From: Actinomycetes bacterium
GTDB taxonomy: Bacteria > Actinomycetota > Actinomycetes > Propionibacteriales > Propionibacteriaceae
Direction of reading: 5' to 3'
Assembly: GCA_023387135.1 (NCBI GenBank)
Contig: JAEWIK010000182.1
Location: 1-17,766, forward strand
DNA: 17,766 nt
Each line of letters opens with the position of its first letter. The first letter of the stretch is position 1. The translations under genes and the position numbers were made by a program. Positions 2-17,766 of the stretch are shown piece after piece. Below the pieces are notes generated by a model. The model did no database searches and was not told where the DNA came from. It saw nothing but the letters and a program-made list of their open reading frames with translations.

Positions 2-916
2 CTGTGGGTGGTCCCGCTGCTGGTCGCCGGCTACATCTGGGTGGTCAGGAGCCGGAAGAAGACAGGCATGCGGTTCACCAACACGACGATCCTGTCGCGC
101 GTGGTGCCCAAGCAGTCGCAGTGGCGCAGGCACCTGGCTGTCGCCCTGTCGCTGTTCTCGCTGGTGTCGCTGGCGCTGGCGTGGGCGCGCCCGAACGGCG
201 TCGAGATGGTGCCGAGGGAGCGGGCGACAGTCGTGCTCGTCATCGACATCTCGCAGTCGATGCGGGCCACCGACGTCAAGCCGAACCGGTTGGACGCCGC
301 CAAGCAGGCGGCCATCACCTTCGTGAAGGAGCTGCCGGCCCAGTACAACCTCGCGCTGGTCAGCCTGTCCGGCAACCCGTCGGTGAGGCTGCCACCCACC
401 CTCGACAGGGTGATGGCGCAGCAGGCGATCAACAGCCTCCGCGTGCAGGACTCGACCAGCGTCGGTGAGTCGGTCTACACGGCGCTGACGGCGTTGCAGA
501 TGGCTCCCAGGGGCGAGGACGGCAGCATCGCGCCGGGCGCGATCGTGCTGCTGAGCGACGGCCAGAACACCGCCGGGCGCTCCCCGCAGCAGGCAGCGGC
601 CGAGGCGAAGAAGGCCGAGGTCCCGATCTACTCGATCGCTTACGGCACCCAAAACGGCTACGTCGACCTGGACGGCAAGCGCGAGCGCGTGCCGCCGGAC
701 GACCAGTTGCTGCAGACCTTGTCGTCGATGACCGGCGGCCAGTCCTACTCGGCGGAGAGCCTTCCCGAACTCGACAGGGTGTACGGCAACATCCGCAGCG
801 AGGTCGGGATGGTTCCGGTGAAGAAGGAAGTCACCGCGTTGTGGGCCGGCTACGGCCTGGCCTTCGCGGTGGTGGCTGCGCTGGCCGCGGTGTCCCTGGG
901 AGCGAGGTGGCCGTGA
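2..916 (+). CDS. VWA-domain membrane protein (first of two tandem copies), 5' end cut by window edge
   Basis: Seen: the reading frame is open to the left edge. Alignment with the next gene suggests only about 10-12 N-terminal residues are missing, so an internal GTG at position 8 is unlikely to be the true start. The visible protein has a hydrophobic segment at its very start, a second at about residues 45-61, a VWA domain from about residue 75 with the MIDAS metal motif Asp-Ile-Ser-Gln-Ser (visible residues 82-86) and a later LLSDGQNT strand, and a C-terminal membrane helix ending in GARWP. Known: BatA-like VWA proteins with this topology follow MoxR ATPase and DUF58 genes (Rv1479-Rv1481 in M. 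tuberculosis) and are linked to envelope stress or metal-protein maturation. Inferred: the upstream genes outside the window are DUF58 and moxR. The stop shares one base with the next start, implying translational coupling. The domain call is firm; the role is not. Confidence 0.88.
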   Translation: MWVVPLLVAGYIWVVRSRKKTGMRFTNTTILSRVVPKQSQWRRHLAVALSLFSLVSLALAWARPNGVEMVPRERATVVLVIDISQSMRATDVKPNRLDAAKQAAITFVKELPAQYNLALVSLSGNPSVRLPPTLDRVMAQQAINSLRVQDSTSVGESVYTALTALQMAPRGEDGSIAPGAIVLLSDGQNTAGRSPQQAAAEAKKAEVPIYSIAYGTQNGYVDLDGKRERVPPDDQLLQTLSSMTGGQSYSAESLPELDRVYGNIRSEVGMVPVKKEVTALWAGYGLAFAVVAALAAVSLGARWP

Positions 917-1875
917 TGGAGTGGCTACAGTTCATGCGTCCCGAGCGGTTGTGGTGGTTGCTGCTGATCCCCGCGCTGCTGTTGCTGTACGTCGGCCTGC
1001 TGGCCCGTCGCAGGCACCACTCCCGGGCCAACACGATCGCGAAGCTGGAACGCGTCCTGCCCCGGCAACAGGCCTGGAAACGCCACGTGGCGGTCGGCGG
1101 CGCCGTGCTGGCGCTGGCGGCGCTCAACGTCGCGTACGCCCAGCCGAAGGGCGAGGTCGAGGTGCCGCGGGACAGGGCGACGGTCGTCCTCACCATCGAC
1201 ATCTCGCGGTCGATGATCGCCGAGGACGTCGCCCCGAACCGGCTGGACGCCGCGAAGGCCGCCGCCAAGGACTTCCTCAACCTGTTGCCGCGCGGCTTCA
1301 ACGTCTCGCTGGTCAGCTTCGCGGCGACGGCGGCGGTGGTCGTCCCGCCGACGACGGATCGCGGCATGGTCGCGGCGGCGATCGACAACCTGCAGGTGGC
1401 TCCGTCCACGGCGATCGGGGAGGGCATCTTCTCGGCGCTGGACGCGATGGCGCAGGCTCCGCCCGACCCCGACCACCCCGATGAGCCGGCCCCCGGCGCG
1501 ATAGTGCTGCTGAGCGACGGCTACACCAACATCGGCAGGTCGTCGTCCTCGGCGGCCGAGGAGGCCAAGTCCCTGAAGATCCCGATCTACACGATCGCGT
1601 ACGGCACCGCCGGCGGTTACGTCGAGAGCAACGGACGCCGCGAGCCCGTCCCGGTGAACCACCAGGAGCTCGAGGTCATCGCGCGGATCTCCGGCGGCGA
1701 GAAGTTCTCCGCAGGAAGCAGCGCCGAGCTGAAGCGCGTCTACCAGTCGATCGCCAACACCGTCGGCTACGTGAAGGTCGACCAGGAGGTGACCGAGCAG
1801 TACGCCGGTTACGCCCTCGCGTTCGCGATCCTCGCCTCGCTCGCCCTCATGTCCCTGGCCGCCCGCTGGCCGTGA
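916..1875 (+). CDS. VWA-domain membrane protein (second tandem copy)
   Basis: A 319-residue paralogue of the preceding protein. The ATG at 916 overlaps the previous TGA by one base (TGATG), and the start is supported by the family-like N-terminus MEWLQFMRPERLWW. Predicted membrane helices lie at about residues 12-30, 57-75 and 297-315, leaving a VWA domain (about 88-285) on one side of the membrane. The MIDAS ligands are visible: D95, S97 and S99 in DISRSM, T165 in PSTAIGEG and D201 in LLSDG, so metal-dependent ligand binding should be intact. Both copies end in the same AARWP/GARWP tail. Known: BatA/Rv1481-type proteins work with MoxR AAA+ ATPases. Inferred: the two copies may form a heteromeric pair in the membrane. 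The ligand is unknown. Confidence 0.9.
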   Translation: MEWLQFMRPERLWWLLLIPALLLLYVGLLARRRHHSRANTIAKLERVLPRQQAWKRHVAVGGAVLALAALNVAYAQPKGEVEVPRDRATVVLTIDISRSMIAEDVAPNRLDAAKAAAKDFLNLLPRGFNVSLVSFAATAAVVVPPTTDRGMVAAAIDNLQVAPSTAIGEGIFSALDAMAQAPPDPDHPDEPAPGAIVLLSDGYTNIGRSSSSAAEEAKSLKIPIYTIAYGTAGGYVESNGRREPVPVNHQELEVIARISGGEKFSAGSSAELKRVYQSIANTVGYVKVDQEVTEQYAGYALAFAILASLALMSLAARWP

Positions 1876-2013: not shown

Positions 2014-2511
2014 ATGGAGATCACGCGCGGGATCATCCTGATCCACTCGGCGCCGGCAGCGCTGTGCCCGCATCTGGAATGGGCGGTCAGCGCCGCGACA
2101 GGGAGCGTCATCAGGTTCGACTGGACCCCGCAGCCCGCCGAGCCCCGCACCATGCGCGCCGAACACTTCTGGACCGGCGCCCCGGGCACCGGAGCCACCC
2201 TCGCGAGCGCGCTGGCCAGGTGCGAGCGTGCCCGCTTCGAGGTGACCGAGGACCCGACGGGCCACAGCGAGGGGCAACGTTGGGCTTTCACCCCCAGGTT
2301 GGGTGTCTTCTCGGCCGTGACCGGCCCCAATGGCGACATCATGATCCACGAGAACCGCATCAAGCGGGCCATCGTGGGCGAAGCGCTCGGCGGCAAGTCC
2401 CTGCTGGAGGCGCTCGAAGACCTGCTCGGCACGAGCTGGGACGACGAGCTGGAAGCCTTCAGGCACGCGGGCGAGGGCAGCTCCGTCCGCTGGCTGCACG
2501 CGGTGAGCTGA
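2014..2511 (+). CDS. DUF3145 family protein
   Basis: A 165-residue protein whose full length resembles the actinobacterial DUF3145 family: an N-terminal TRGIILIHSAPAALCPHLEWA segment, an FDWTPQP segment, an F-EVTEDP-T-EG-R segment and a C-terminal WDDELEAFRHAGEG..RWLH block. There is no signal peptide or membrane helix, so it is probably cytosolic. Known: DUF3145 genes sit next to the fabDHPF cluster in Streptomyces; the biochemical function is not established. Here the gene converges on accD with only 11 bp between the stop codons. The ATG at 2014 fits both the family start and the GAAGGGG Shine-Dalgarno at 2001-2007, which is buried in a hairpin. No function should be asserted beyond a likely link to fatty-acid synthesis. 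Confidence 0.87.
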   Translation: MEITRGIILIHSAPAALCPHLEWAVSAATGSVIRFDWTPQPAEPRTMRAEHFWTGAPGTGATLASALARCERARFEVTEDPTGHSEGQRWAFTPRLGVFSAVTGPNGDIMIHENRIKRAIVGEALGGKSLLEALEDLLGTSWDDELEAFRHAGEGSSVRWLHAVS

Positions 2512-2522
2512 CCCCGGGGCCC

Positions 2523-3938
2523 CTAGAGCGGGATATTCGTGTGGACGCCGCGGACGCCGAAGTCGGCGGTCCTGATGGCGTCGGCGATCGCCGAGCGCGT
2601 GGCGGCGGGGGAGAGGATCTCGTCCACCACCCCGATCTCGACGGCCTTCTCGACGCCGCCGGCGATCTTCTGGTGCTCGTCGGCCAACTGGGTCTCGACC
2701 TCGGCCAGCATGTCGGCGGGCACCTCGGCCAACCGGCGGCGGTGCAGGATGCGGATCGCGGCCACCGGCCCCATCACGGCGATCTCGGCACCCGGCCAGG
2801 CGAACACCCGGGTCGCGCCCAGTGAGCGGGCGTTCATGGCGATGTAGGCGCCGCCGTACGCCTTTCGCGTGACCAGGGTGACGCGGGGAACCGAGGCCTC
2901 GGAGAACGCGTGCAGCAGCTTGGCGCCGCGGCGCACCACTCCGTCCCACTCCTGGCCGACGCCGGGAAGGTAGCCGGGCACGTCCACGAGGACGACCAGC
3001 GGCACCCCGAACGCGTCGCACAGCCTGACGAAACGGGCAGCCTTCTCCGCCGACAGCGAGTCCAGGCAGCCGCCCAGCCGCAACGGGTTGTTGGCGATGA
3101 CGCCGACGGTGCGGCCGCCGAGCCTGCCCAGCGCGATGGTGATGTTGGGCGCCCAGCGGGTGTGCAGCTCGAACACCGAGCCCTCGTCCAGCACGCCCTC
3201 GACGAGCGGGTGGACGTCGTAGGCCCGCTTGGGCGAGTCGGGCAGCAGCGCCGACAGGTCGGCGTCCTCGACGGTTCCGATGGCGCCCTGGGCGGCCAGC
3301 AGCGACGTGACGGCACGACCGCGGGCCAGTGCGTCCGCCTCGTTGTCGGCGACGACGTGGACGACCCCCGAGCGACGCTCGTGGGTGTCGGGACCACCGA
3401 GCCGCAGCATGTCGACGTCCTCGCCCGTGACCGAGCGGACGACGTCGGGCCCGGTGACGAAGATCCTCCCGGTCGGCGCGAGGATGACCACGTCGGTGAG
3501 CGCCGGCCCGTAGGCGGCGCCACCCGCGGCGGCTCCCAGCACGATCGAGATCTGCGGGATCTTGCCGGACGCCTGGGTCATGGCGTTGAAGATCCTGCCG
3601 ACGGCGTGCAGGCTCAGCACACCCTCGGCGAGGCGGGCGCCGCCCGAGTGCCAGATGCCGAGGATGGGGACGCGGTCCACCATGGCCCTGCGATACGCCT
3701 GGACCACTACCTCGCAGCCGTCCCAGCCCATCGCGCCGCCCATCACGGTGGCGTCGGAGCAGAACGCGACCACGGGCGACCCGTTGACGGTGCCTGTCGC
3801 CGCCAGCATGCCGGAGTCGTCATCGGCGCTGATCAGGCTCAGCGAGCCCGGGTCGAGCAACGCCTCCAGCCTGTGGTGCGGGTTGCGCGGATCCTCCTCG
3901 CGCGACAGCCGCGCGGGCTTTGTCGGGGCCTCGGTCAT
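2523..3938 (-). CDS. accD: Acyl-CoA carboxylase beta subunit (carboxyltransferase), AccD6-like
   Basis: Carboxyltransferase of biotin-dependent acyl-CoA carboxylases: it moves carboxyl from biotin on a separate alpha chain to acetyl- or propionyl-CoA, giving malonyl- or methylmalonyl-CoA. The 471 residues hold two crotonase-like halves. The N half has the oxyanion-hole motif GAAAGGAAYGPA (about 135-146), and the C half has PGYLPGVGQEW (321-331) and RKAYGGAYIAM (358-368). In that motif the residue after GGAY is Ile366; from memory, the equivalent position is Asp422 in the propionyl-specific S. coelicolor PccB and Ile in acetyl-accepting subunits, so acetyl-CoA use is favoured (inference). It is somewhat shorter than typical 510-540-residue PccB proteins. 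It starts 29 bp after fabF, last in the FAS operon, as accD6 is in mycobacteria. No alpha (biotin carboxylase/BCCP) gene is in the window. Confidence 0.9.
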   Translation of the reverse strand: MTEAPTKPARLSREEDPRNPHHRLEALLDPGSLSLISADDDSGMLAATGTVNGSPVVAFCSDATVMGGAMGWDGCEVVVQAYRRAMVDRVPILGIWHSGGARLAEGVLSLHAVGRIFNAMTQASGKIPQISIVLGAAAGGAAYGPALTDVVILAPTGRIFVTGPDVVRSVTGEDVDMLRLGGPDTHERRSGVVHVVADNEADALARGRAVTSLLAAQGAIGTVEDADLSALLPDSPKRAYDVHPLVEGVLDEGSVFELHTRWAPNITIALGRLGGRTVGVIANNPLRLGGCLDSLSAEKAARFVRLCDAFGVPLVVLVDVPGYLPGVGQEWDGVVRRGAKLLHAFSEASVPRVTLVTRKAYGGAYIAMNARSLGATRVFAWPGAEIAVMGPVAAIRILHRRRLAEVPADMLAEVETQLADEHQKIAGGVEKAVEIGVVDEILSPAATRSAIADAIRTADFGVRGVHTNIPL

Positions 3939-5311: not shown

Positions 5312-5554
5312 TCAGGAGTGGGCCTCGATGTAGGCGACAGCGTCGCCGACAGTCTTGAGGTTCTTCGACTCCTCATCGGGGATCGCGACGCCGAACTTCT
5401 CCTCGCAACCGACGAGGATCTCGACCATGGCGAGCGAGTCGACGTCGAGGTCGTCGGTGAAGGACTTGTCGAGCTGGACGTCCTCGACCGGCACGCCCGC
5501 AACGTCGTTGACGAGTTCGGCGAGCTGGGCGCGGATTTCTTCAGTGGTAGCCAT
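5312..5554 (-). CDS. acpP: Acyl carrier protein
   Basis: An 80-residue acidic carrier protein that holds growing acyl chains on 4'-phosphopantetheine. The attachment serine is Ser40 in DDLDVDSLAMVEI, the usual DSL site at the start of helix II, and the end KTVGDAVAYIEAHS is typical of actinobacterial ACPs. The start MATTEEIRAQL at 5554 is preferred over an in-frame ATG 33 bp further upstream because AAGGAG (5565-5570) precedes it and the extra residues have no family match. It lies between fabH (54 bp upstream) and fabF (87 bp downstream). A holo-ACP synthase is not in the window. Confidence 0.95.
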   Translation of the reverse strand: MATTEEIRAQLAELVNDVAGVPVEDVQLDKSFTDDLDVDSLAMVEILVGCEEKFGVAIPDEESKNLKTVGDAVAYIEAHS

Positions 5555-5608
5555 GGCCTGGTTTCTCCTTAGTGTTGGACGTGGCATGGGCCGGCCGGAG
5601 CCGGGGGA

Positions 5609-6604
5609 TCAGGGGAGGGTGACGACCTGGCCGGCGTACACCAGCCCGGCGCCGAAGCCGATCAGCAGTGCGGTCTGGCCGCTCTTGGCCTCGCCGCTGG
5701 CCAGCAGCGCGTCCATGGCGATCGGGATGGACGCCGCCGAGTTGTTGCCGTAGTGCTGGATGGTCCTCGCCACCACGACCTTCTCGGGCAGCTTGAGGTA
5801 GCGCAGCAGGGTGTCGGTGATCCGGTTGTTCGCCTGGTGCGGGATGAACACGTCGAGGTCGTCGGGGGTGAGGCCCGACCTCTCCAGGCACTGCTGGGTC
5901 GCCGTGGCGATGAAGCTGGTCGCCCACTTGAAGACGCTGCGGCCGTCCATGCCGAGGGCCGGCCAGGTGCCGGTCTCCACGGCTGTCTTCCAGTCCTGCG
6001 CCTGCCAGATGGCGTCGGCCTGGGTGCCGTCGGAGCCCCACACCACCGGGCCGATGCCGTTGACGTCGCTGGGCCCCACGATGGCGGCGCCCGCGCCGTC
6101 GGCGAACAGGAAGGCGGTGCCCCTGTCGTGCAGGTCGGTCATTCGCGACAGGGTCTCGGCGCCGATCACCAGCACGTGCTTCGCCTGGCCGGCGCGCACG
6201 AGCGCCTCGGCCTGCGCCAGCCCGTAGCAGAAGCCGGCACAAGCGGCGGAGATGTCGTAGGCCGCGGTGTCGGTCATGCCGAGCTTGACGGCGAGCGTCG
6301 GGGCGAGCGCGGGGGTCTGGTAGTAGTGCGAGACGGTCGACAGCAGCAGGGCGTCCACGTCCGACGGTTGCAGGCCCGCCCGCTCGATCGCCTTGGCGCC
6401 GGCCTCGAGGCACAACGTCTCGAGGCTCTCGCCCTCGGCCAGCCAGCGACGCTCCTTGATGCCGGTGCGCTGCTGGATCCACTCGTCGGAGGAGTCGATG
6501 AACTGCACCATGTACTCGTTGTCGAGCACCCGGCTCGGGATGGCGGAAGCCACGGACAGGATGCGGGCAAACGGTGACCCGGTGCTCGCCTTGAGGGTGG
6601 TCAC
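5609..6604 (-). CDS. fabH: Beta-ketoacyl-ACP synthase III
   Basis: Initiating condensing enzyme: it joins an acyl-CoA primer (acetyl- or branched-chain acyl-CoA) to malonyl-ACP. The 331 residues carry the Cys-His-Asn triad: Cys122 in SAACAGFCYGL, His256 in IPHQANNRI and Asn287 in HYGNNSAAS; the GFGAGLVYAGQV end is typical. The GTG at 6604 is chosen because it overlaps the fabD stop as GTGA and has AGGAG (6612-6616) 7 nt upstream inside fabD. The frame stays open much further upstream, but that part is a shadow of fabD. The overlap predicts translational coupling between malonyl loading and chain initiation. Primer specificity cannot be read from sequence alone; many actinobacterial enzymes prefer branched primers. 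Confidence 0.95.
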   Translation of the reverse strand: MTTLKASTGSPFARILSVASAIPSRVLDNEYMVQFIDSSDEWIQQRTGIKERRWLAEGESLETLCLEAGAKAIERAGLQPSDVDALLLSTVSHYYQTPALAPTLAVKLGMTDTAAYDISAACAGFCYGLAQAEALVRAGQAKHVLVIGAETLSRMTDLHDRGTAFLFADGAGAAIVGPSDVNGIGPVVWGSDGTQADAIWQAQDWKTAVETGTWPALGMDGRSVFKWATSFIATATQQCLERSGLTPDDLDVFIPHQANNRITDTLLRYLKLPEKVVVARTIQHYGNNSAASIPIAMDALLASGEAKSGQTALLIGFGAGLVYAGQVVTLP

Positions 6605-7812
6605 GAAGCTGCTCCTGAATTGGCGTCGAGAAGTGGGTAGAGGCGGACGAGCGGCTGGCCGGGCGCGACAGGGTCGCCGTCCTCGACGAGCCACTCCACG
6701 ACGGTGCCGCCGTGCGGTGCCGTGATCGGCGTGCTGTTGCGCAGCGTGGCGACATGCCCGACGACGGCGTGCGGCTGCAGCGTCGCACCATCGGCGATGT
6801 CGGGAGTGCGCGCGAAGGTGCCCTTGGCGGGCGAGACGACGAGCATCCACGAGGGAGTCGTGGAGAGTGCCGACGGGGTCGACGCCTCGCCGTGCTTGCT
6901 GACGAACTCGCGGGCGGCGGGGATCTGGTCGGGGGTGTTCAGGGCGAACAGTTCGACGCCCTTCAGGTTGCGCTTGGCGATGCCCGTCAGCGTGCCCGCG
7001 GGCGGCAGTTCGAGCAGCCCCGTCACGCCGAGGTCGGCCATCGTCTCCATGCACAGGTCCCAGCGGACGGGGTTCGCCACCTGCGCGACCAGCCGCTTGA
7101 GGTACTCCGAACCGCTCTGGACGACAGCCCCGTCGGCGTTCGACAGCAGCCGGGTGCGCGGGTCGTGGGTAGTGATGGCCTTCGAGAGCGCCGCCAGATG
7201 GGCGACGGCCGGTTCCATGTGGACGGTGTGGAACGCGCCGGCGACGCTGAGTTGTACGAGCCTCGCCCTGGCGGGCGGGTTCTCGCTCAGGGCGGCGAGT
7301 TGTTCGACGGTGCCCGCGGCGACGATCTGGCCGGAGCCGTTGTTGTTGGCGGGAGTGAGCCCCTGGGCGGCCAGCGCTGCGAGCACTTCGTCACGGTCGC
7401 CGCCCACCACCGCCATCATCGAGGTGGGACGGACGGCGCTCGCCGCGGCCATCTGCGCGCCGCGCTCCCTGACGAACACCATCGCCTGCTCGGCGCTCAG
7501 TACTCCCACGCCGGCGGCGGCGGTGATCTCCCCGACGCTGTGGCCCGCCGCCACCCCGACGTGCCGGAAGGCGTCGGCGGGCGAGGGGAACAGGTCGAGC
7601 GCGGTCAGCAGGCCGGAGGCGACCAGCAGCGGCTGCGCGATGGCGGTGTCCCTGATGGTCTCGGCGTCGGCCTGCGTCCCGTAATGGGCGAGGTCGAGTC
7701 CGGCGACGGTGGACAGCCACGCCAGCCTGTCGGCGAAGTTGGGTTCTGTCAGCCAAGGCCCGAGGAAGCCGGGCGTCTGGGCGCCCTGCCCGGGGGCGAC
7801 GATTGCGAGCAC
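6601..7812 (-). CDS. fabD: Malonyl-CoA:ACP transacylase with an extra C-terminal biotinyl/lipoyl-like domain
   Basis: Transfers malonyl from CoA to ACP. Starting at the GTG at 7812, the N-terminus is MLAIVAPGQGAQTPGF and the key residues are Ser92 in GHSVGE, Arg117 in RERGAQM and His195 in AGAFHTVH; Ser92 and Arg117 then match E. coli FabD numbering exactly. NPVRW replaces the E. coli NPVQW, which I recall as usual in actinobacteria. A GTG at 7860 would add 16 residues, but no Shine-Dalgarno precedes it. At 403 residues it is about 100 longer than ordinary FabD. After a Ser/Thr-rich linker (about 308-320), residues 321-395 resemble a biotinyl/lipoyl domain: RNSTPITAPHGGTVVEWLVE and then DGDPVAPGQPL match the second half of carboxyl-carrier domains, with Arg358 where the modified Lys should be. 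Covalent biotin or lipoate is therefore not expected. First gene of the FAS operon. Confidence 0.93.
   Translation of the reverse strand: MLAIVAPGQGAQTPGFLGPWLTEPNFADRLAWLSTVAGLDLAHYGTQADAETIRDTAIAQPLLVASGLLTALDLFPSPADAFRHVGVAAGHSVGEITAAAGVGVLSAEQAMVFVRERGAQMAAASAVRPTSMMAVVGGDRDEVLAALAAQGLTPANNNGSGQIVAAGTVEQLAALSENPPARARLVQLSVAGAFHTVHMEPAVAHLAALSKAITTHDPRTRLLSNADGAVVQSGSEYLKRLVAQVANPVRWDLCMETMADLGVTGLLELPPAGTLTGIAKRNLKGVELFALNTPDQIPAAREFVSKHGEASTPSALSTTPSWMLVVSPAKGTFARTPDIADGATLQPHAVVGHVATLRNSTPITAPHGGTVVEWLVEDGDPVAPGQPLVRLYPLLDANSGAAS
6612..6616 (-). promoter_or_regulatory. fabH ribosome-binding site inside fabD
   Basis: AGGAG on the minus strand, 7 nt before the GTG at 6604. It lies within the last codons of fabD and decides the fabH start at the GTGA overlap. 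Confidence 0.7.
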
Positions 7813-7879
7813 GGCTCTACTCTTGCGCGCGCCGGACGTGTCCGCGGTAGGTGACGACACGAAATCAGGGTGGCAGCTT

Positions 7880-13818: not shown

Positions 13819-14673
13819 TCAGCGACGGGCGGCGTGGGCCTCGTAGGCGGCGCCGATGATGCCCGAGTCGTTGCCCATGCGGGCGCGGACGACGGGCGCC
13901 TCCAGTTGGAGCAGGGGAAGGAACCTGTCGGCGTCGTGGCTGATGCCGCCGCCGATCACGATGAGGTCCGGCCAGAGCAGGCTCTCGGCGTAGGCCAGGT
14001 ACTCCTGCAGGCGGGAGACCCACTGGGCCCACGAGAGCTTGTCGCGGGTGAGCGCCGCCGCCGACGCCCACGGGCAGCAGTCGAAGCCGTCGATGGTGAG
14101 GTGCCCCAGCTCGGTGTTGGGGACGAGGTGGCCGTCGACGAAGAGCGCCGAGCCGATGCCGGTGCCCAAGGTCACCACGAACACCACCCCCGCCACGCCC
14201 TGCGCGGCACCCCTCGCCACCTCGGCCAGGCCGGCTGCGTCGGCGTCGTTGAGCAGGGTCACGGGGGCGCCGAGGACGTCGGCGAACAGCGCGTCACCGT
14301 CGGTGCCGATCCAGGATTCGTCGATGTTGGCGGCGGTCCTCACAATGCCGCGCCTGACGACGGCAGGAACCGTCACCCCGACGGCGGCCTCCTCGAAGCC
14401 CACGAACTGCAGGCGCAGGTCGCGGACGGCCTCGGCCACGGCGAGCGGAGTCGCAGGAAGCGGCGTGGGGGCCGTCAGCCGGGACGCGCACAGCTCGCCC
14501 GTCGCGAGGTCGACCGGAGCCGCCTTGATGGCGGTGCCGCCGACGTCGATGCCGAGCGCCACGCCGCCGGGCGCCGGCCGTCCGTGGAACGCGACGGGCT
14601 CGACGGGCGGGGCGACCGGGTCGACCTGCTGGTCGACGGCGTCGACCAGCGGGGTGGAGGGGTTGCTCGACAT
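13819..14673 (-). CDS. ppgK: Polyphosphate (ATP) glucokinase, ROK family
   Basis: Phosphorylates glucose to glucose 6-phosphate using inorganic polyphosphate or ATP in the cytosol. The 284-residue protein shows the ROK phosphate-binding ALGIDVGGTAIK (39-50), LLNDADAAGLAE (140-151) with likely catalytic Asp143, VTLGTGIGSALF (167-178), NTELGHL (186-192) and the GGGIS loop. These blocks and RTAANIDESWIG (112-123) match the M. tuberculosis polyphosphate glucokinase closely. It lacks the CxCGxxGC zinc motif of other ROK kinases, as expected for this subgroup. The first 35 residues are a Pro/Val-rich, probably disordered tail. An AAGGAAG Shine-Dalgarno precedes the ATG. It begins 21 bp after the glycyl radical enzyme stop on the same strand, so the two are probably cotranscribed. 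Confidence 0.9.
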   Translation of the reverse strand: MSSNPSTPLVDAVDQQVDPVAPPVEPVAFHGRPAPGGVALGIDVGGTAIKAAPVDLATGELCASRLTAPTPLPATPLAVAEAVRDLRLQFVGFEEAAVGVTVPAVVRRGIVRTAANIDESWIGTDGDALFADVLGAPVTLLNDADAAGLAEVARGAAQGVAGVVFVVTLGTGIGSALFVDGHLVPNTELGHLTIDGFDCCPWASAAALTRDKLSWAQWVSRLQEYLAYAESLLWPDLIVIGGGISHDADRFLPLLQLEAPVVRARMGNDSGIIGAAYEAHAARR

Positions 14674-14694: not shown

Positions 14695-17133
14695 CTAGAG
14701 GGTCTGTTCGGTGCGGGCGATGATGTCGTCCTGGGTGGCCTTGGACAACACGGTGAAGAACGCGCTGTAGCCCGCCACGCGCACGATGAGGTCGCGGTGA
14801 CGCTCGGGATGCGCCTGGGCGTCGAGCAAGGTCGCGCGGTCGACCACGTTGTACTGGACGTGGAAGCCGCCGAGCCTGTTGAAGAACGTGCGCAGCAGCA
14901 GGACGAGCTTGGCCCTGTCCTCGCTCGTCGTGAGCAGTTGAGGGTTGACCTTCTGGTTGAGCAGGACGCCGCCGGTGATGCGCGGGGTGTCGAGCTTGGA
15001 GACCGACTTGAACACGGCGGTGGGCCCGCGCAGGTCGGCGCCGTGGCTGGGGGAGCAGCCCTCGGCCAGCGGTTCGCCGGCGTGGCGGCCGTCCGGGGTG
15101 GCCATCGTGCTCGCCCCCTGCGGGACGTTGGCCGAGATGGACGACGTGCCCGCGTAGTACCCGCCGCCGATCGGCCCGCGCCCGTAGCGGGTGTTGTGGT
15201 GGGCGAAGATCTCGTCGATGCAGGTGTCGTACGCGCGGACGAGCAGGGTGTCGACGTAGTCGTCGTCGTTGCCGTACTTGGGGGCGTCGAGCAGCAGCGC
15301 GCGGATCTGCTCCCCGCGCTCGCCGGCGAAGTCGCCCAGCAGCGCGTCCCACAGTTCCTGCGCCGTCATCGAGCGGTCCTCGAAGACGCACTTCTTGATC
15401 GCCGCCAGCGAGTCGCCGAGGTTGGCGATGCCCACCTGCAGCCCCGAGATGAAGTCGTAGACGGCGCCGCCCTCCTTGATGGGCTTGCCGCGGCCGAGGC
15501 AGTCCTCCACCAGCGTCGAGCAGAGGATGTCGGCGACGCTCTCCTCCAGGGCGATGTCGCACGCGGTGTCGAGCGCCACGCAGTGCCGCTGGAACTCCCT
15601 GACAGTGACGTCCCACGCCTCCAGCAGCTCGTCGAAGGTTGCCATCTCCGTGAGGTGCTTCACCGGAGTCGCGAGCTGGACGCCCGACGCCGGGTCGACC
15701 CCGTTGTTCATGGCGATCAGCAGCGTCTTCGGGAAGTTGAGGAAGCTCATGCCCGTGCAGCGGTAGCCCCACTTGCCCGGGACCGCGACCTCCACGCACC
15801 CGACGGCCGAGTAGTCGTGGGCGTCCTGCGGGGTCACACCCTTGGCGACCAGGGACGGGATGATGATCTCGTCGCTGTTGAAGGCGGGCATGCCGAAGCC
15901 GAGGCGCATCACCTCGATGCACTCGACCATGAAGTCGTCCGAGAGCCCGCTGTGATACCTCACCGTGAGGTTCGGCTGCGGCAGCCTCGTCTGGGCGACC
16001 GAGCGCAGCACCAGGTACGACAGGGGATTGACGGCGTCGCGTCCGTCCGGTGTCTGACCGCCCACCGTGACGTTCTGGTACAGCGGCCCGCCGGCGCTGA
16101 ACCGGGTGTGGGACCAGCTCCTGATCTTCGCCACGGTGATGGTCTTCAGCCAGAGGTTGGTGAGCAGTTCGGTGGCGGCGTCCTCGGTGATGAGCCCGGC
16201 CTCGAGGTCGCGCGCGTAGAACGGGTAGAGGTACTGGTCGAACCTGCCGTAGGAGAGCGAGTGGCCGTTCGACTCGATCTGCAGGCAGAGCTGGATGAGC
16301 CAGACCGCCTGGACTGCCTCCCTGAAGCTCGTCGCAGGGTGCTCGGGCACGCGGTCGAGGATGCCGCTCATCTGCTGCAGCTCGGCCCGCCGGACGGGGT
16401 CGGGCTCGGTGGTGGCGAGGTCGGCGGCCAGCGCCGAGTAGCGGTGGGCGAAGCCGACGACGGCATCGAGGGTGATCAGCACCGCCCGGTAGAAGAAGGA
16501 CTTCTTCAGCCCCTCGGCGGTGGTGGTGTCGAGCGAGCCCAGCAGGTGCTCGGCGCGGGCCCGATAGCCGGCGAGGCCTTCGGCGAGCATGCGCCGGTAG
16601 TCGACGGCGATGTGGGCGTCGCCGGAGGTGATGTTGCCCTCGGGATGGATGATGCCGAGGTCGTAGAACCGCCTGCTCTGCGGCGGCATGAGCGCGAGGC
16701 CGCGGTCCTTGAGGGTGTTGTGCTCCCAGAACGGTGCCACCTCGCGCAGGGCCTGCTTGGCCTCCTCGGTGATGGTGAACCTGTCGCCGGGCCGGGCGTC
16801 GAACTCGTCCAGTTCGGCGATCACCCAGTCCATCGCGTACTCGGGCATGATCGGCGCCGCCCGGTTCGTCGAGGCCTGATTGCCGCAGATGAGCGTGGCG
16901 GGCTCGATGTAGATGGTCATGTTGTCGAGGACGTTCTTCACCATGAGCGCACGCCGGAGGACCATCGGTTCGTGCTGGTGCTCCCTGTAGGTCTCGGTGG
17001 TGAGCAGGGCGCGCTCCACGCAGACCGAGGCGGGGGTGTCGAGCAACTGCTCGCGCCAGGCCGCCATCCGGGGCGTGAGCCTCCCGAAGTGGGGTTCGTG
17101 GACTGTGGCCCGTGTTTCGGCCAGCGTGGTCAT
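14695..17133 (-). CDS. PFL2-type glycyl radical enzyme, probable dehydratase
   Basis: An 812-residue oxygen-sensitive radical enzyme. The glycyl-radical loop RVAGYS near the C-terminus places the radical on Gly788. The thiyl-radical site is YSAVGCVEVAVPGKWGYRC, with Cys446 and general base Glu448. Known: Cys-X-Glu occurs in glycerol, propanediol, choline and hydroxyproline lyases/dehydratases, whereas true pyruvate formate-lyase has adjacent cysteines, so a C-C or C-O bond eliminase is favoured over PFL. The start overlaps the upstream DeoR-type gene as ATGA, and ppgK follows after 21 bp. The phosphosugar-type regulator and sugar kinase suggest a sugar or polyol substrate (inference). A radical-SAM activating enzyme is required, but none lies in the window. 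The ATG at 17133 is preferred over longer frames that shadow the regulator. Confidence 0.9.
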   Translation of the reverse strand: MTTLAETRATVHEPHFGRLTPRMAAWREQLLDTPASVCVERALLTTETYREHQHEPMVLRRALMVKNVLDNMTIYIEPATLICGNQASTNRAAPIMPEYAMDWVIAELDEFDARPGDRFTITEEAKQALREVAPFWEHNTLKDRGLALMPPQSRRFYDLGIIHPEGNITSGDAHIAVDYRRMLAEGLAGYRARAEHLLGSLDTTTAEGLKKSFFYRAVLITLDAVVGFAHRYSALAADLATTEPDPVRRAELQQMSGILDRVPEHPATSFREAVQAVWLIQLCLQIESNGHSLSYGRFDQYLYPFYARDLEAGLITEDAATELLTNLWLKTITVAKIRSWSHTRFSAGGPLYQNVTVGGQTPDGRDAVNPLSYLVLRSVAQTRLPQPNLTVRYHSGLSDDFMVECIEVMRLGFGMPAFNSDEIIIPSLVAKGVTPQDAHDYSAVGCVEVAVPGKWGYRCTGMSFLNFPKTLLIAMNNGVDPASGVQLATPVKHLTEMATFDELLEAWDVTVREFQRHCVALDTACDIALEESVADILCSTLVEDCLGRGKPIKEGGAVYDFISGLQVGIANLGDSLAAIKKCVFEDRSMTAQELWDALLGDFAGERGEQIRALLLDAPKYGNDDDYVDTLLVRAYDTCIDEIFAHHNTRYGRGPIGGGYYAGTSSISANVPQGASTMATPDGRHAGEPLAEGCSPSHGADLRGPTAVFKSVSKLDTPRITGGVLLNQKVNPQLLTTSEDRAKLVLLLRTFFNRLGGFHVQYNVVDRATLLDAQAHPERHRDLIVRVAGYSAFFTVLSKATQDDIIARTEQTL

Positions 17134-17766
17134 CTGACGTCCTCTCGAGGGTTCGTGGGATCGGAAGGGACTGTCGTCACTGTGACGCCGGCGTGCCTGA
17201 GGTGGTCGGCCATGGCGGGCGTGAGGGAGGAATCCGTGACGACCTCGGCGACGGCGTCCACGGGCAGCAGCGGCACGGCGCCCTGCCGGGGGAACTTGAG
17301 AGACTCGGTGAGCACCACGACGTGGCGGGCGCGCTGCGCCATCGCCCTGACCGCGGCGGCGCGCAGATGGTTGCCCCCCGTGAAGCCGGCGGCCTCGGTG
17401 TAGCCGTCGATGCCGATGAACAGCCTGTCGACGAAGAAGTTGGCGGCACCCTGCTCGACCAGCGGCCCCACCACCACCTGCGACTCGGGTTGGTAGTCGC
17501 CTCCGAGCAGGACGACCGAGGCCTGGGAGGCGCGGACGTGGTCGGCGATGAAAGCCGAATTGGTGATGATCGTGACGCCGCGGCGGGTGCTGCCGAGCTC
17601 CTCGGCGAGCAGCGCGCAGCACGACCCCGACTCGATCATGACGGTGGCGCCGTTCGGGACGAGGGTCGCCGCCGCGGCGGCGATCCGACGCTTGACGTCG
17701 TAGTGGAAGGCGAGCCTGCTGCGCAGGTCGTCCGGCGCGATGGCCTCCGCGTACCCGTGCTGGCGC
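17130..17766 (-). CDS. DeoR-family transcriptional regulator, 5' end cut by window edge
   Basis: The frame runs to the right edge; the N-terminal helix-turn-helix lies outside, so a start at 17639 within the window is not real. Visible is the DeoR sensor domain: DDLRSRLAFHYDVKRRIAAA, then GATVMIESGSCCALLAEELG (equivalent of the phosphate-binding DxGTT region), TIITNSAFIADHV, VVLLGGDYQPESQVVVGP, FVDRLFIGIDGYTEAAGFTG and HVVVLTESLKF. Known: DeoR regulators usually repress sugar catabolic operons and are released by a phosphosugar. The stop overlaps the start of the glycyl radical enzyme by 4 bp, so the regulator is cotranscribed with its likely target. The effector is unknown. Confidence 0.85.
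   Translation of the reverse strand, partial: RQHGYAEAIAPDDLRSRLAFHYDVKRRIAAAAATLVPNGATVMIESGSCCALLAEELGSTRRGVTIITNSAFIADHVRASQASVVLLGGDYQPESQVVVGPLVEQGAANFFVDRLFIGIDGYTEAAGFTGGNHLRAAAVRAMAQRARHVVVLTESLKFPRQGAVPLLPVDAVAEVVTDSSLTPAMADHLRHAGVTVTTVPSDPTNPREDVR

What the first reader, a model, noticed from the sequence alone, without database searches (positions are those of the whole stretch)
6601..7560. FabD fused to a biotinyl/lipoyl-like domain that has lost its lysine
FabD is normally about 300 residues. Here about 75 extra residues after a Ser/Thr-rich linker resemble the carrier domain of acyl-CoA carboxylases, including DGDPVAPGQPL, but the modified Lys is replaced by Arg358 (RNSTPI). The same operon ends with the carboxylase beta subunit. 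A carrier fold that cannot carry biotin, attached to the enzyme that consumes malonyl-CoA, could be a docking module that links carboxylase and malonyl transfer, or a regulatory decoy for the carboxylase or biotin ligase. The function is inference; the architecture is visible.
Basis: partly seen in the sequence, partly recalled or inferred. Interest (0 to 1): 0.7.

Follow-up and report, generated by a model that had tools for sequence, protein, structure and literature searches.

The report
FabD carrying a dead biotin-carrier domain
In many actinobacteria the enzyme that loads malonyl units for fat synthesis carries an extra domain shaped like a biotin carrier but unable to hold biotin, and genomes that lose one particular carboxylase subunit tend to lose this domain too, which suggests that the two proteins work together.

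The parts
6901..7812 (-). FabD malonyl-CoA:ACP transacylase core, residues 17-320 (419-aa numbering)
   Evidence: PF00698 57.7 bits; closest solved chain 1nm2. Q25, S108, R133, H211 and Q260 are present in 223 or 224 of 224 aligned cores; their catalytic roles are recalled
6850..6900 (-). linker, residues 321-337
   Evidence: 327-336 has pLDDT below 50 in the full-length model
6631..6849 (-). pseudo-biotinyl (BCCP-like) domain, residues 338-410
6739..6741 (-). codon CGC of Arg374 (Arg358 from the 7812 start), in the place of the biotinyl lysine
   Evidence: read; profile alignment with transcarboxylase 1.3S; R in 136/149 locus tails and 86/86 database tails, K in 0/235
2523..3938 (-). accD, AccD6-type carboxyltransferase beta subunit, last gene of the operon, 29 bases after fabF
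   Evidence: PF01039; best solved match AccD6 4fb8, 635 bits, against 390 for the next other protein, PccB 1xnw
5609..6604 (-). fabH; putative GTG start at 6604 overlaps the fabD stop (GTGA), with AGGAG inside the last codons of fabD
   Evidence: TIGR00747 355.6 bits; start read by eye
5312..5587 (-). acpP, acyl carrier protein
   Evidence: PF00550
3968..5224 (-). fabF, beta-ketoacyl-ACP synthase II
   Evidence: PF00109/PF02801
7974..9431 (-). PucR-type regulator (FasR-like) upstream of fabD; longest ORF, start not settled
   Evidence: PF13556 HTH_30 and PF17853; FasR name by analogy with S. coelicolor FasR, activator of the fasII operon (PMC5541348, passages)

Best explanation
The tail is a biotinyl domain that has given up biotin: a BCCP mimic on a flexible linker, fused to FabD. 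SHOWN: BCCP fold by prediction, sequence homology, loss of the MKM-type biotinylation site with Arg in the lysine's place, conservation, and phylogenetic association with the AccD6-type carboxyltransferase gene. INFERRED: the domain docks on the AccD6-containing acetyl-CoA carboxylase, at or near the surface that the true biotin carrier uses, with the Arg hairpin in the place of the biotinyl-lysine hairpin. This holds FabD next to the site where malonyl-CoA is made, so that malonyl passes quickly to FabD and on to AcpP, and FabD occupancy can feed back on the carboxylase. When a lineage loses AccD6, the domain has no partner, the Arg drifts and the domain decays.
For: Fold and homology. R 136/149 and 86/86, K 0/235. 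Co-occurrence in 224 distinct operons: both 105, neither 79, accD only 31, tail only 9 (recounted). Independent pairs on the concatenated operon tree: 20; same way 12.8, opposite 0.5, no difference 6.7, median p 0.0005; FabF tree 11.4 against 0.1, FabH tree 12.8 against 0.0. Dependent against independent model: LR 52.9, p 9e-11; tail-loss rate 4.3 without accD, 0.55 with it. fabH, acpP and fabF lie between tail and accD and are kept in the tail-less relatives, so one deletion cannot remove both. AccD6 homologues above 50% identity were not found in any of 53 tail-less genomes without operon accD searched whole (21 of the 31 genomes, 32 of the 42). Among 113 tails with a readable site, Arg is kept in 97/104 with accD but in 3/9 without, Fisher p 5e-5. 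Closest contrast: L031 lacks both, while L003 at 0.093 changes per site has both. Presence of DUF3145, FabH or FasR is not significantly associated with the tail, but few pairs differ, so these controls are weak.
Against: 31 loci have accD without tail, so the coupling is dispensable elsewhere. Nine loci keep the tail without operon accD; in 8 of those 9 genomes no AccD6 was found elsewhere, and 3 of the 9 keep the Arg. The FabD-core tree alone gives 5.3 same, 0.5 opposite, median p 0.125. The Arg link rests on only 4 independent pairs (3.1 same, 0 opposite, p 0.25), and 7 tails lack Arg although accD is there. Tail dN/dS does not clearly differ without accD (0.69 in 37 pairs against 0.54 in 7330, pairs overlapping). 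The fitted model also wants a high rate of accD gain beside a tail (6.1), which may mean only that tail-without-accD is short-lived, or that the model is stretched. The partner could be the biotinylated alpha subunit rather than AccD6.
Confidence: 0.55

Rival explanations
1. Regulatory decoy: the biotin-free domain competes with the true BCCP for the carboxyltransferase or biotin carboxylase and so throttles or assembles the carboxylase in step with FabD level (BADC-like), without any handing over of malonyl-CoA.
For: Same fold, no biotin site, association with AccD6. Plant BADC proteins are non-biotinylated BCCP relatives that act on heteromeric ACCase, read as inhibitors in vivo and as assembly glue in vitro (PMC11926652, passages).
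Against: It does not explain by itself why the domain sits on FabD; any protein would do.
Confidence: 0.22
2. The tail serves FabD or AcpP (stability, dimerisation, ACP docking). Its link with accD is a by-product of both being old features of the operon that were lost in the same lineages.
For: Tail and accD both cluster on the tree; nine tails persist without operon accD; the FabD-core tree alone does not reach significance.
Against: Several phylogenetically independent co-changes with almost no discordant pairs. The controls DUF3145 (0.5 same, 2.6 opposite), FabH (2.3, 0.0) and FasR (1.5, 0.2) show no comparable association, though with few informative pairs.
Confidence: 0.15
3. The domain binds biotin protein ligase or the biotinylated alpha subunit and adjusts biotin loading.
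For: BCCP fold lacking the acceptor lysine.
Against: Other carboxyltransferase paralogues were found in 20 of 21 and 32 of 32 tail-less genomes, so biotin-dependent carboxylases seem still to be there, yet the tail is gone.
Confidence: 0.06
4. Vestigial fusion without function.
For: The tail evolves faster than the core (dN ratio about 1.7).
Against: G347, G385, E389, W390, D396 and R406 are conserved in 98-100% of 235 tails, R374 in 94%; tail dN is below dS in all 45 closest pairs printed, some of them repeats of one genome; 3218 proteins.
Confidence: 0.02

Closest known systems
Biotin carboxyl carrier protein domain of bacterial acetyl-CoA carboxylase (AccB; 1bdo, 4hr7)
   Different: Biotinyl lysine is Arg; an xLRD hairpin replaces AMKM; fused to FabD instead of being an ACC subunit
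Plant BADC proteins (biotin attachment domain-containing)
   Same: BCCP-like, no biotinylation motif, tied to acetyl-CoA carboxylase
   Different: Free-standing plastid proteins acting with BC and BCCP; not fused to a malonyltransferase; the PMC11926652 abstract calls these noncatalytic subunits unique to the plant enzyme
Actinobacterial FAS II operon with accD6
   Same: fabD first and an accD6-type gene last (mycobacterial operon order recalled; the five genes fabD, acpM, kasA, kasB, accD6 are named together as typically induced by Fas2 inhibitors in PMC12803843, passage)
   Different: The M. tuberculosis FabD chains solved (302-322 residues) have no such tail; here FabH is in the operon and FabD carries the extra domain
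Streptomyces coelicolor FabD (1nm2; species recalled)
   Same: Catalytic domain, 337 bits
   Different: 317-residue chain, no tail

Membership tests
FabD (malonyl-CoA:ACP transacylase) | conserved Ser-His-Arg-Gln set (roles recalled) | tested here: met
   S108, H211, R133, Q260 in 223-224 of 224 aligned cores
FabD (malonyl-CoA:ACP transacylase) | TIGR00128 equivalog cut-off (260.9 bits) | tested here: not met
   153.6 bits. In one search only 10 of 138 genomes of the class had any match over it, while 124 of the same 138 have a FabD-core match at E<=1e-30, so the model seems tuned to other lineages; 1nm2 is the closest solved chain
FabD (malonyl-CoA:ACP transacylase) | transferase activity | not testable with these tools
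   needs assay
BCCP / biotinyl domain | flattened beta-barrel biotinyl fold | tested here: met
BCCP / biotinyl domain | biotinyl lysine in an MKM-type hairpin | tested here: not met
   Arg374; K in 0 of 235 tails
BCCP / biotinyl domain | Pfam PF00364 gathering score | tested here: met
   22.1 bits at a cut-off of 22.1 in the whole protein, 26.0 for the tail alone
Lipoyl domain (E2, GcvH) | lipoyl lysine at the hairpin | tested here: not met
   same position, no Lys
BADC | BCCP-like without biotinylation motif | tested here: met
BADC | free-standing subunit of the carboxylase | tested here: not met
   fused to FabD
BADC | physical partner of the carboxylase | not testable with these tools
   only genetic association
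AccD6-type carboxyltransferase (window 2523-3938) | closest solved relative is AccD6 | tested here: met
   4fb8 635 bits, next other protein 390

The most novel reading that the evidence does not exclude
Bacteria evolved a covalent address label, a biotin-carrier mimic with Arg for biotinyl-Lys, that plugs the malonyl transferase of fatty-acid synthesis into the carrier's seat on acetyl-CoA carboxylase, making a gated malonyl-CoA channel in a type II system that is thought of as freely diffusing.
Probability: 0.35. Interest if true: 0.82.

Novelty: new variant of a known kind. Interest (0 to 1): 0.66.

Why it matters
Whether acetyl-CoA carboxylase and the first type II fatty-acid synthesis enzymes are physically coupled in bacteria is an open question to my knowledge. 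Here evolution seems to have built a removable tether, with natural pairs of closely related genomes that have and lack both tether and partner, so coupling can be tested directly. It would also be a bacterial counterpart of plant BADC and a ready part for steering malonyl-CoA.

Tried and rejected
Rejected: chance resemblance (Pfam, profile, fold and conservation agree); an intact carrier (no Lys in 235 tails); a lineage-local oddity; one deletion explaining the co-loss (three kept genes lie between). The simple claim 'accD in the operon implies tail' was tested on a wider class sample and rejected (30 of 59 kept loci have accD without tail). Relaxed selection on tails without accD: inconclusive (G+C-rich codon bias may compress dS). 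Which carboxylase the tail-less genomes use: not settled. A fused AccDA-like ORF scored well in 4 of the 21 tail-less genomes (G454, G422, G460, G562) and also in G444, which has tail and accD; none of 31 genomes passed the accD or BCCP family cut-off. Literature: searches listed no paper on a FabD-biotinyl fusion. I judged by titles and abstract starts; one search listed 12 of 17 papers and 15 of 30; only open-licence PMC papers are held. I read passages of four papers and no whole text. Not done: complex prediction, ancestral reconstruction, mapping of conserved residues on coordinates (models are not among the files given to scripts).

Sampling and rows dropped: 260 loci with longer flanks (80 named, L001-L080; L111-L150; L151-L230; L231-L290) gave 224 rows; 36 were left out: 9 named exclusions (L123, L136, L138, L140, L232 cut by contig ends; L137 and L148, one FabD with a run of N whose tail continues in another ORF; L149 and L150, repeats of named loci), 17 with under 5 kb downstream and no accD, 10 with an identical FabD core. 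L081-L110 were too short and not used. L287 has a partial tail, counted as tail but without an Arg state. In the Arg count the partial tails L123, L136, L138 and L287 were left out. Of 124 genomes with a FabD match, 60 were fetched as L231-L290, chosen by me mainly among those not already known to bear the tail; the 80 family loci were chosen from the rows listed, and L111-L150. The pooled counts are therefore not frequencies in nature. Many genomes are drafts, so absence from a genome is less sure than presence.

Full report
WHAT IS THERE. The minus strand carries a fatty-acid operon: PucR-type regulator, fabD, fabH, acpP, fabF, accD. fabD (6601-7860) encodes 419 aa. Residues 17-320 are an ordinary malonyl transferase; the closest solved chain is 1nm2. 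Q25, S108, R133, H211 and Q260 are kept in 223 or 224 of 224 aligned cores (their catalytic roles are recalled). After a short linker, residues 338-410 match Biotin_lipoyl at the Pfam cut-off, and 52 of 54 diverse tails match it at E<=0.01. The last gene is an AccD6-type carboxyltransferase (best solved match 4fb8, 635 bits; next other protein 390). fabH seems to start at GTG 6604, overlapping the fabD stop, with AGGAG inside the last fabD codons (by eye).

CONSERVATION. The tail search found 3218 proteins at E<=0.01, the best 120 listed. 77 of 80 named genome loci have the tail: mostly Propionibacteriales, also Jiangellaceae; two carry a Bifidobacterium label that I doubt. A second search from a distant member gave 100 proteins, some named Frankiaceae. 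In 235 distinct full tails the hairpin residue is Arg in 136 of 149 from loci and 86 of 86 from the 120 listed database proteins; the rest are Q, S, G, D, L, A, T, never Lys. One 'A' row (L120) has Arg next door and may be an alignment shift. G347, G385 and E389 are at 100%, W390 98%, D396 99%, R406 98%.

THE LINK WITH accD. In the close relatives L027, L031 and L075 the tail is gone and accD is missing from the operon. I therefore added to the 80 named loci 40 loci from a class sample and earlier handles, 80 from the family of one of the tail-less relatives and 60 from a second class listing. After removing 36 short, cut and duplicate loci, 224 distinct operons remain: tail and accD 105, neither 79, accD only 31, tail only 9. 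Within the family sample all 44 tail-less operons kept lack accD, and 20 of 22 tail-bearing ones have it.

The association is not only shared ancestry. On a FastTree tree of FabD core, FabH, ACP and FabF, 20 independent pairs differ in the tail; accD goes the same way in 12.8, the other way in 0.5, does not differ in 6.7 (mean of 200 pairings; median p 0.0005). Trees of FabF or FabH alone agree; FabD core alone points the same way but is not significant (5.3 against 0.5, p 0.125). A Pagel-type comparison gives LR 52.9 (p 9e-11), with tail loss about eight times faster without accD. Such tests can overstate significance, and the fit also asks for a high rate of accD gain beside a tail. As controls, DUF3145, FabH and FasR presence show no significant association with the tail (0.5 same and 2.6 opposite; 2.3 and 0.0; 1.5 and 0.2), but few pairs differ in them, so they have little power. 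Because the trees use operon genes, transfer of whole operons is followed rather than confounding.

Whole-genome searches suggest that accD was not merely moved. In 53 tail-less genomes without operon accD (21 of the 31 genomes, 32 of the 42) no homologue above 50% identity was found; what remains are paralogues at up to 49%, and in one draft (G004) nothing. The nine tail+accD genomes searched carry copies at 76-88%. Of the nine tail-bearing genomes without operon accD, one (G106) has a 59% copy elsewhere and eight have none. One tail-less genome (G064) does have a 62% copy in its operon.

THE ARGININE. Among 113 tails in the tree with a readable site, Arg is kept in 97 of 104 with accD and in 3 of 9 without (Fisher p 5e-5). 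This would fit an Arg hairpin that touches the carboxylase, but only four independent pairs carry the signal (3.1 same, 0 opposite), so it is a lead. A possible half-decayed tail stands in L187, an accD-less genome (resemblance by eye).

WHAT CUTS AGAINST. accD without tail is common elsewhere (30 of 59 class loci), so the tail is a lineage-specific addition and not part of the basic machine. A small clade (L006, L009, L056, L168) keeps the tail without AccD6, three of the four with Arg. Selection estimates do not show clear relaxation there. Sampling was by me and is not random.

MECHANISM. The domain cannot carry biotin in the usual way, has a BCCP shape, sits on the enzyme that consumes malonyl-CoA, and is kept mainly where the AccD6 carboxyltransferase is present. 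The simplest reading is docking on the AccD6 carboxylase. Whether this channels malonyl-CoA, regulates the carboxylase, or both, is open.

KNOWN RELATIVES. Plant BADC proteins are BCCP relatives that lack the biotinylation motif; they have been read as inhibitors and, from reconstitution, as assembly glue (PMC11926652, abstract and passages). AccD6 is reported as the carboxylase for malonyl-CoA in mycobacteria (PMC4949712, passages), and accD6 is named with fabD, acpM, kasA and kasB as typically induced by Fas2 inhibitors (PMC12803843, passages). I found no report of the FabD fusion (listings only, open-licence PMC only). Where the listed database proteins carry a name, it is S-malonyltransferase, malonyl CoA-ACP transacylase or acyltransferase domain-containing protein.

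VERDICT. Real, conserved and, as far as I could search, undescribed; a new variant of a known kind (a dead biotinyl domain). Identity of the domain about 0.95, dependence on AccD6 about 0.85, physical docking about 0.55.

Noticed in passing
window 14695-17304 (-), 13819-14673 (-), 17130-17639 (-): Pyruvate-formate-lyase-like glycyl radical enzyme with a ROK-family protein and a DeoR-type sensor domain beside it. I did not search for an activating enzyme.
   Followed up: no
L187 (tail-less, accD-less genome G534): FabD ends in 31 residues (GIAAETTIACHASRWQISAPADTGDPVPAGL) that look by eye like a tail with its middle deleted, perhaps caught in decay.
   Followed up: no
L287: Shortened tail of 57 residues (28 bits) in an operon that still has accD.
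   Followed up: no
L072, L074: MAG contigs labelled Bifidobacterium breve that carry this operon, with FabD tails nearly identical to that of a lake actinobacterium MAG (L073); the label is probably wrong.
   Followed up: no
tail-less genomes of G005's family (e.g. G005, G011, G469): No AccD6 found, and no match over the accD or BCCP family cut-offs: where their malonyl-CoA comes from is unclear; a propionyl-CoA carboxylase-type paralogue is a candidate.
   Followed up: partly
window 2014-2511 (+): A DUF3145 gene lies near the far end of the fab operon in 135 of 175 loci with at least 6.5 kb downstream, whether or not the tail is present.
   Followed up: partly
window 6601-6620 (-): The putative fabH start overlaps the fabD stop (GTGA) and its AGGAG lies in the last codons of fabD, so loss of the tail must keep or rebuild that signal (by eye).
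   Followed up: no
window 8-916 (+) and 841-1875 (+): Two neighbouring similar-looking ORFs; the first matches von Willebrand A and BatA families, the second was not searched.
   Followed up: no
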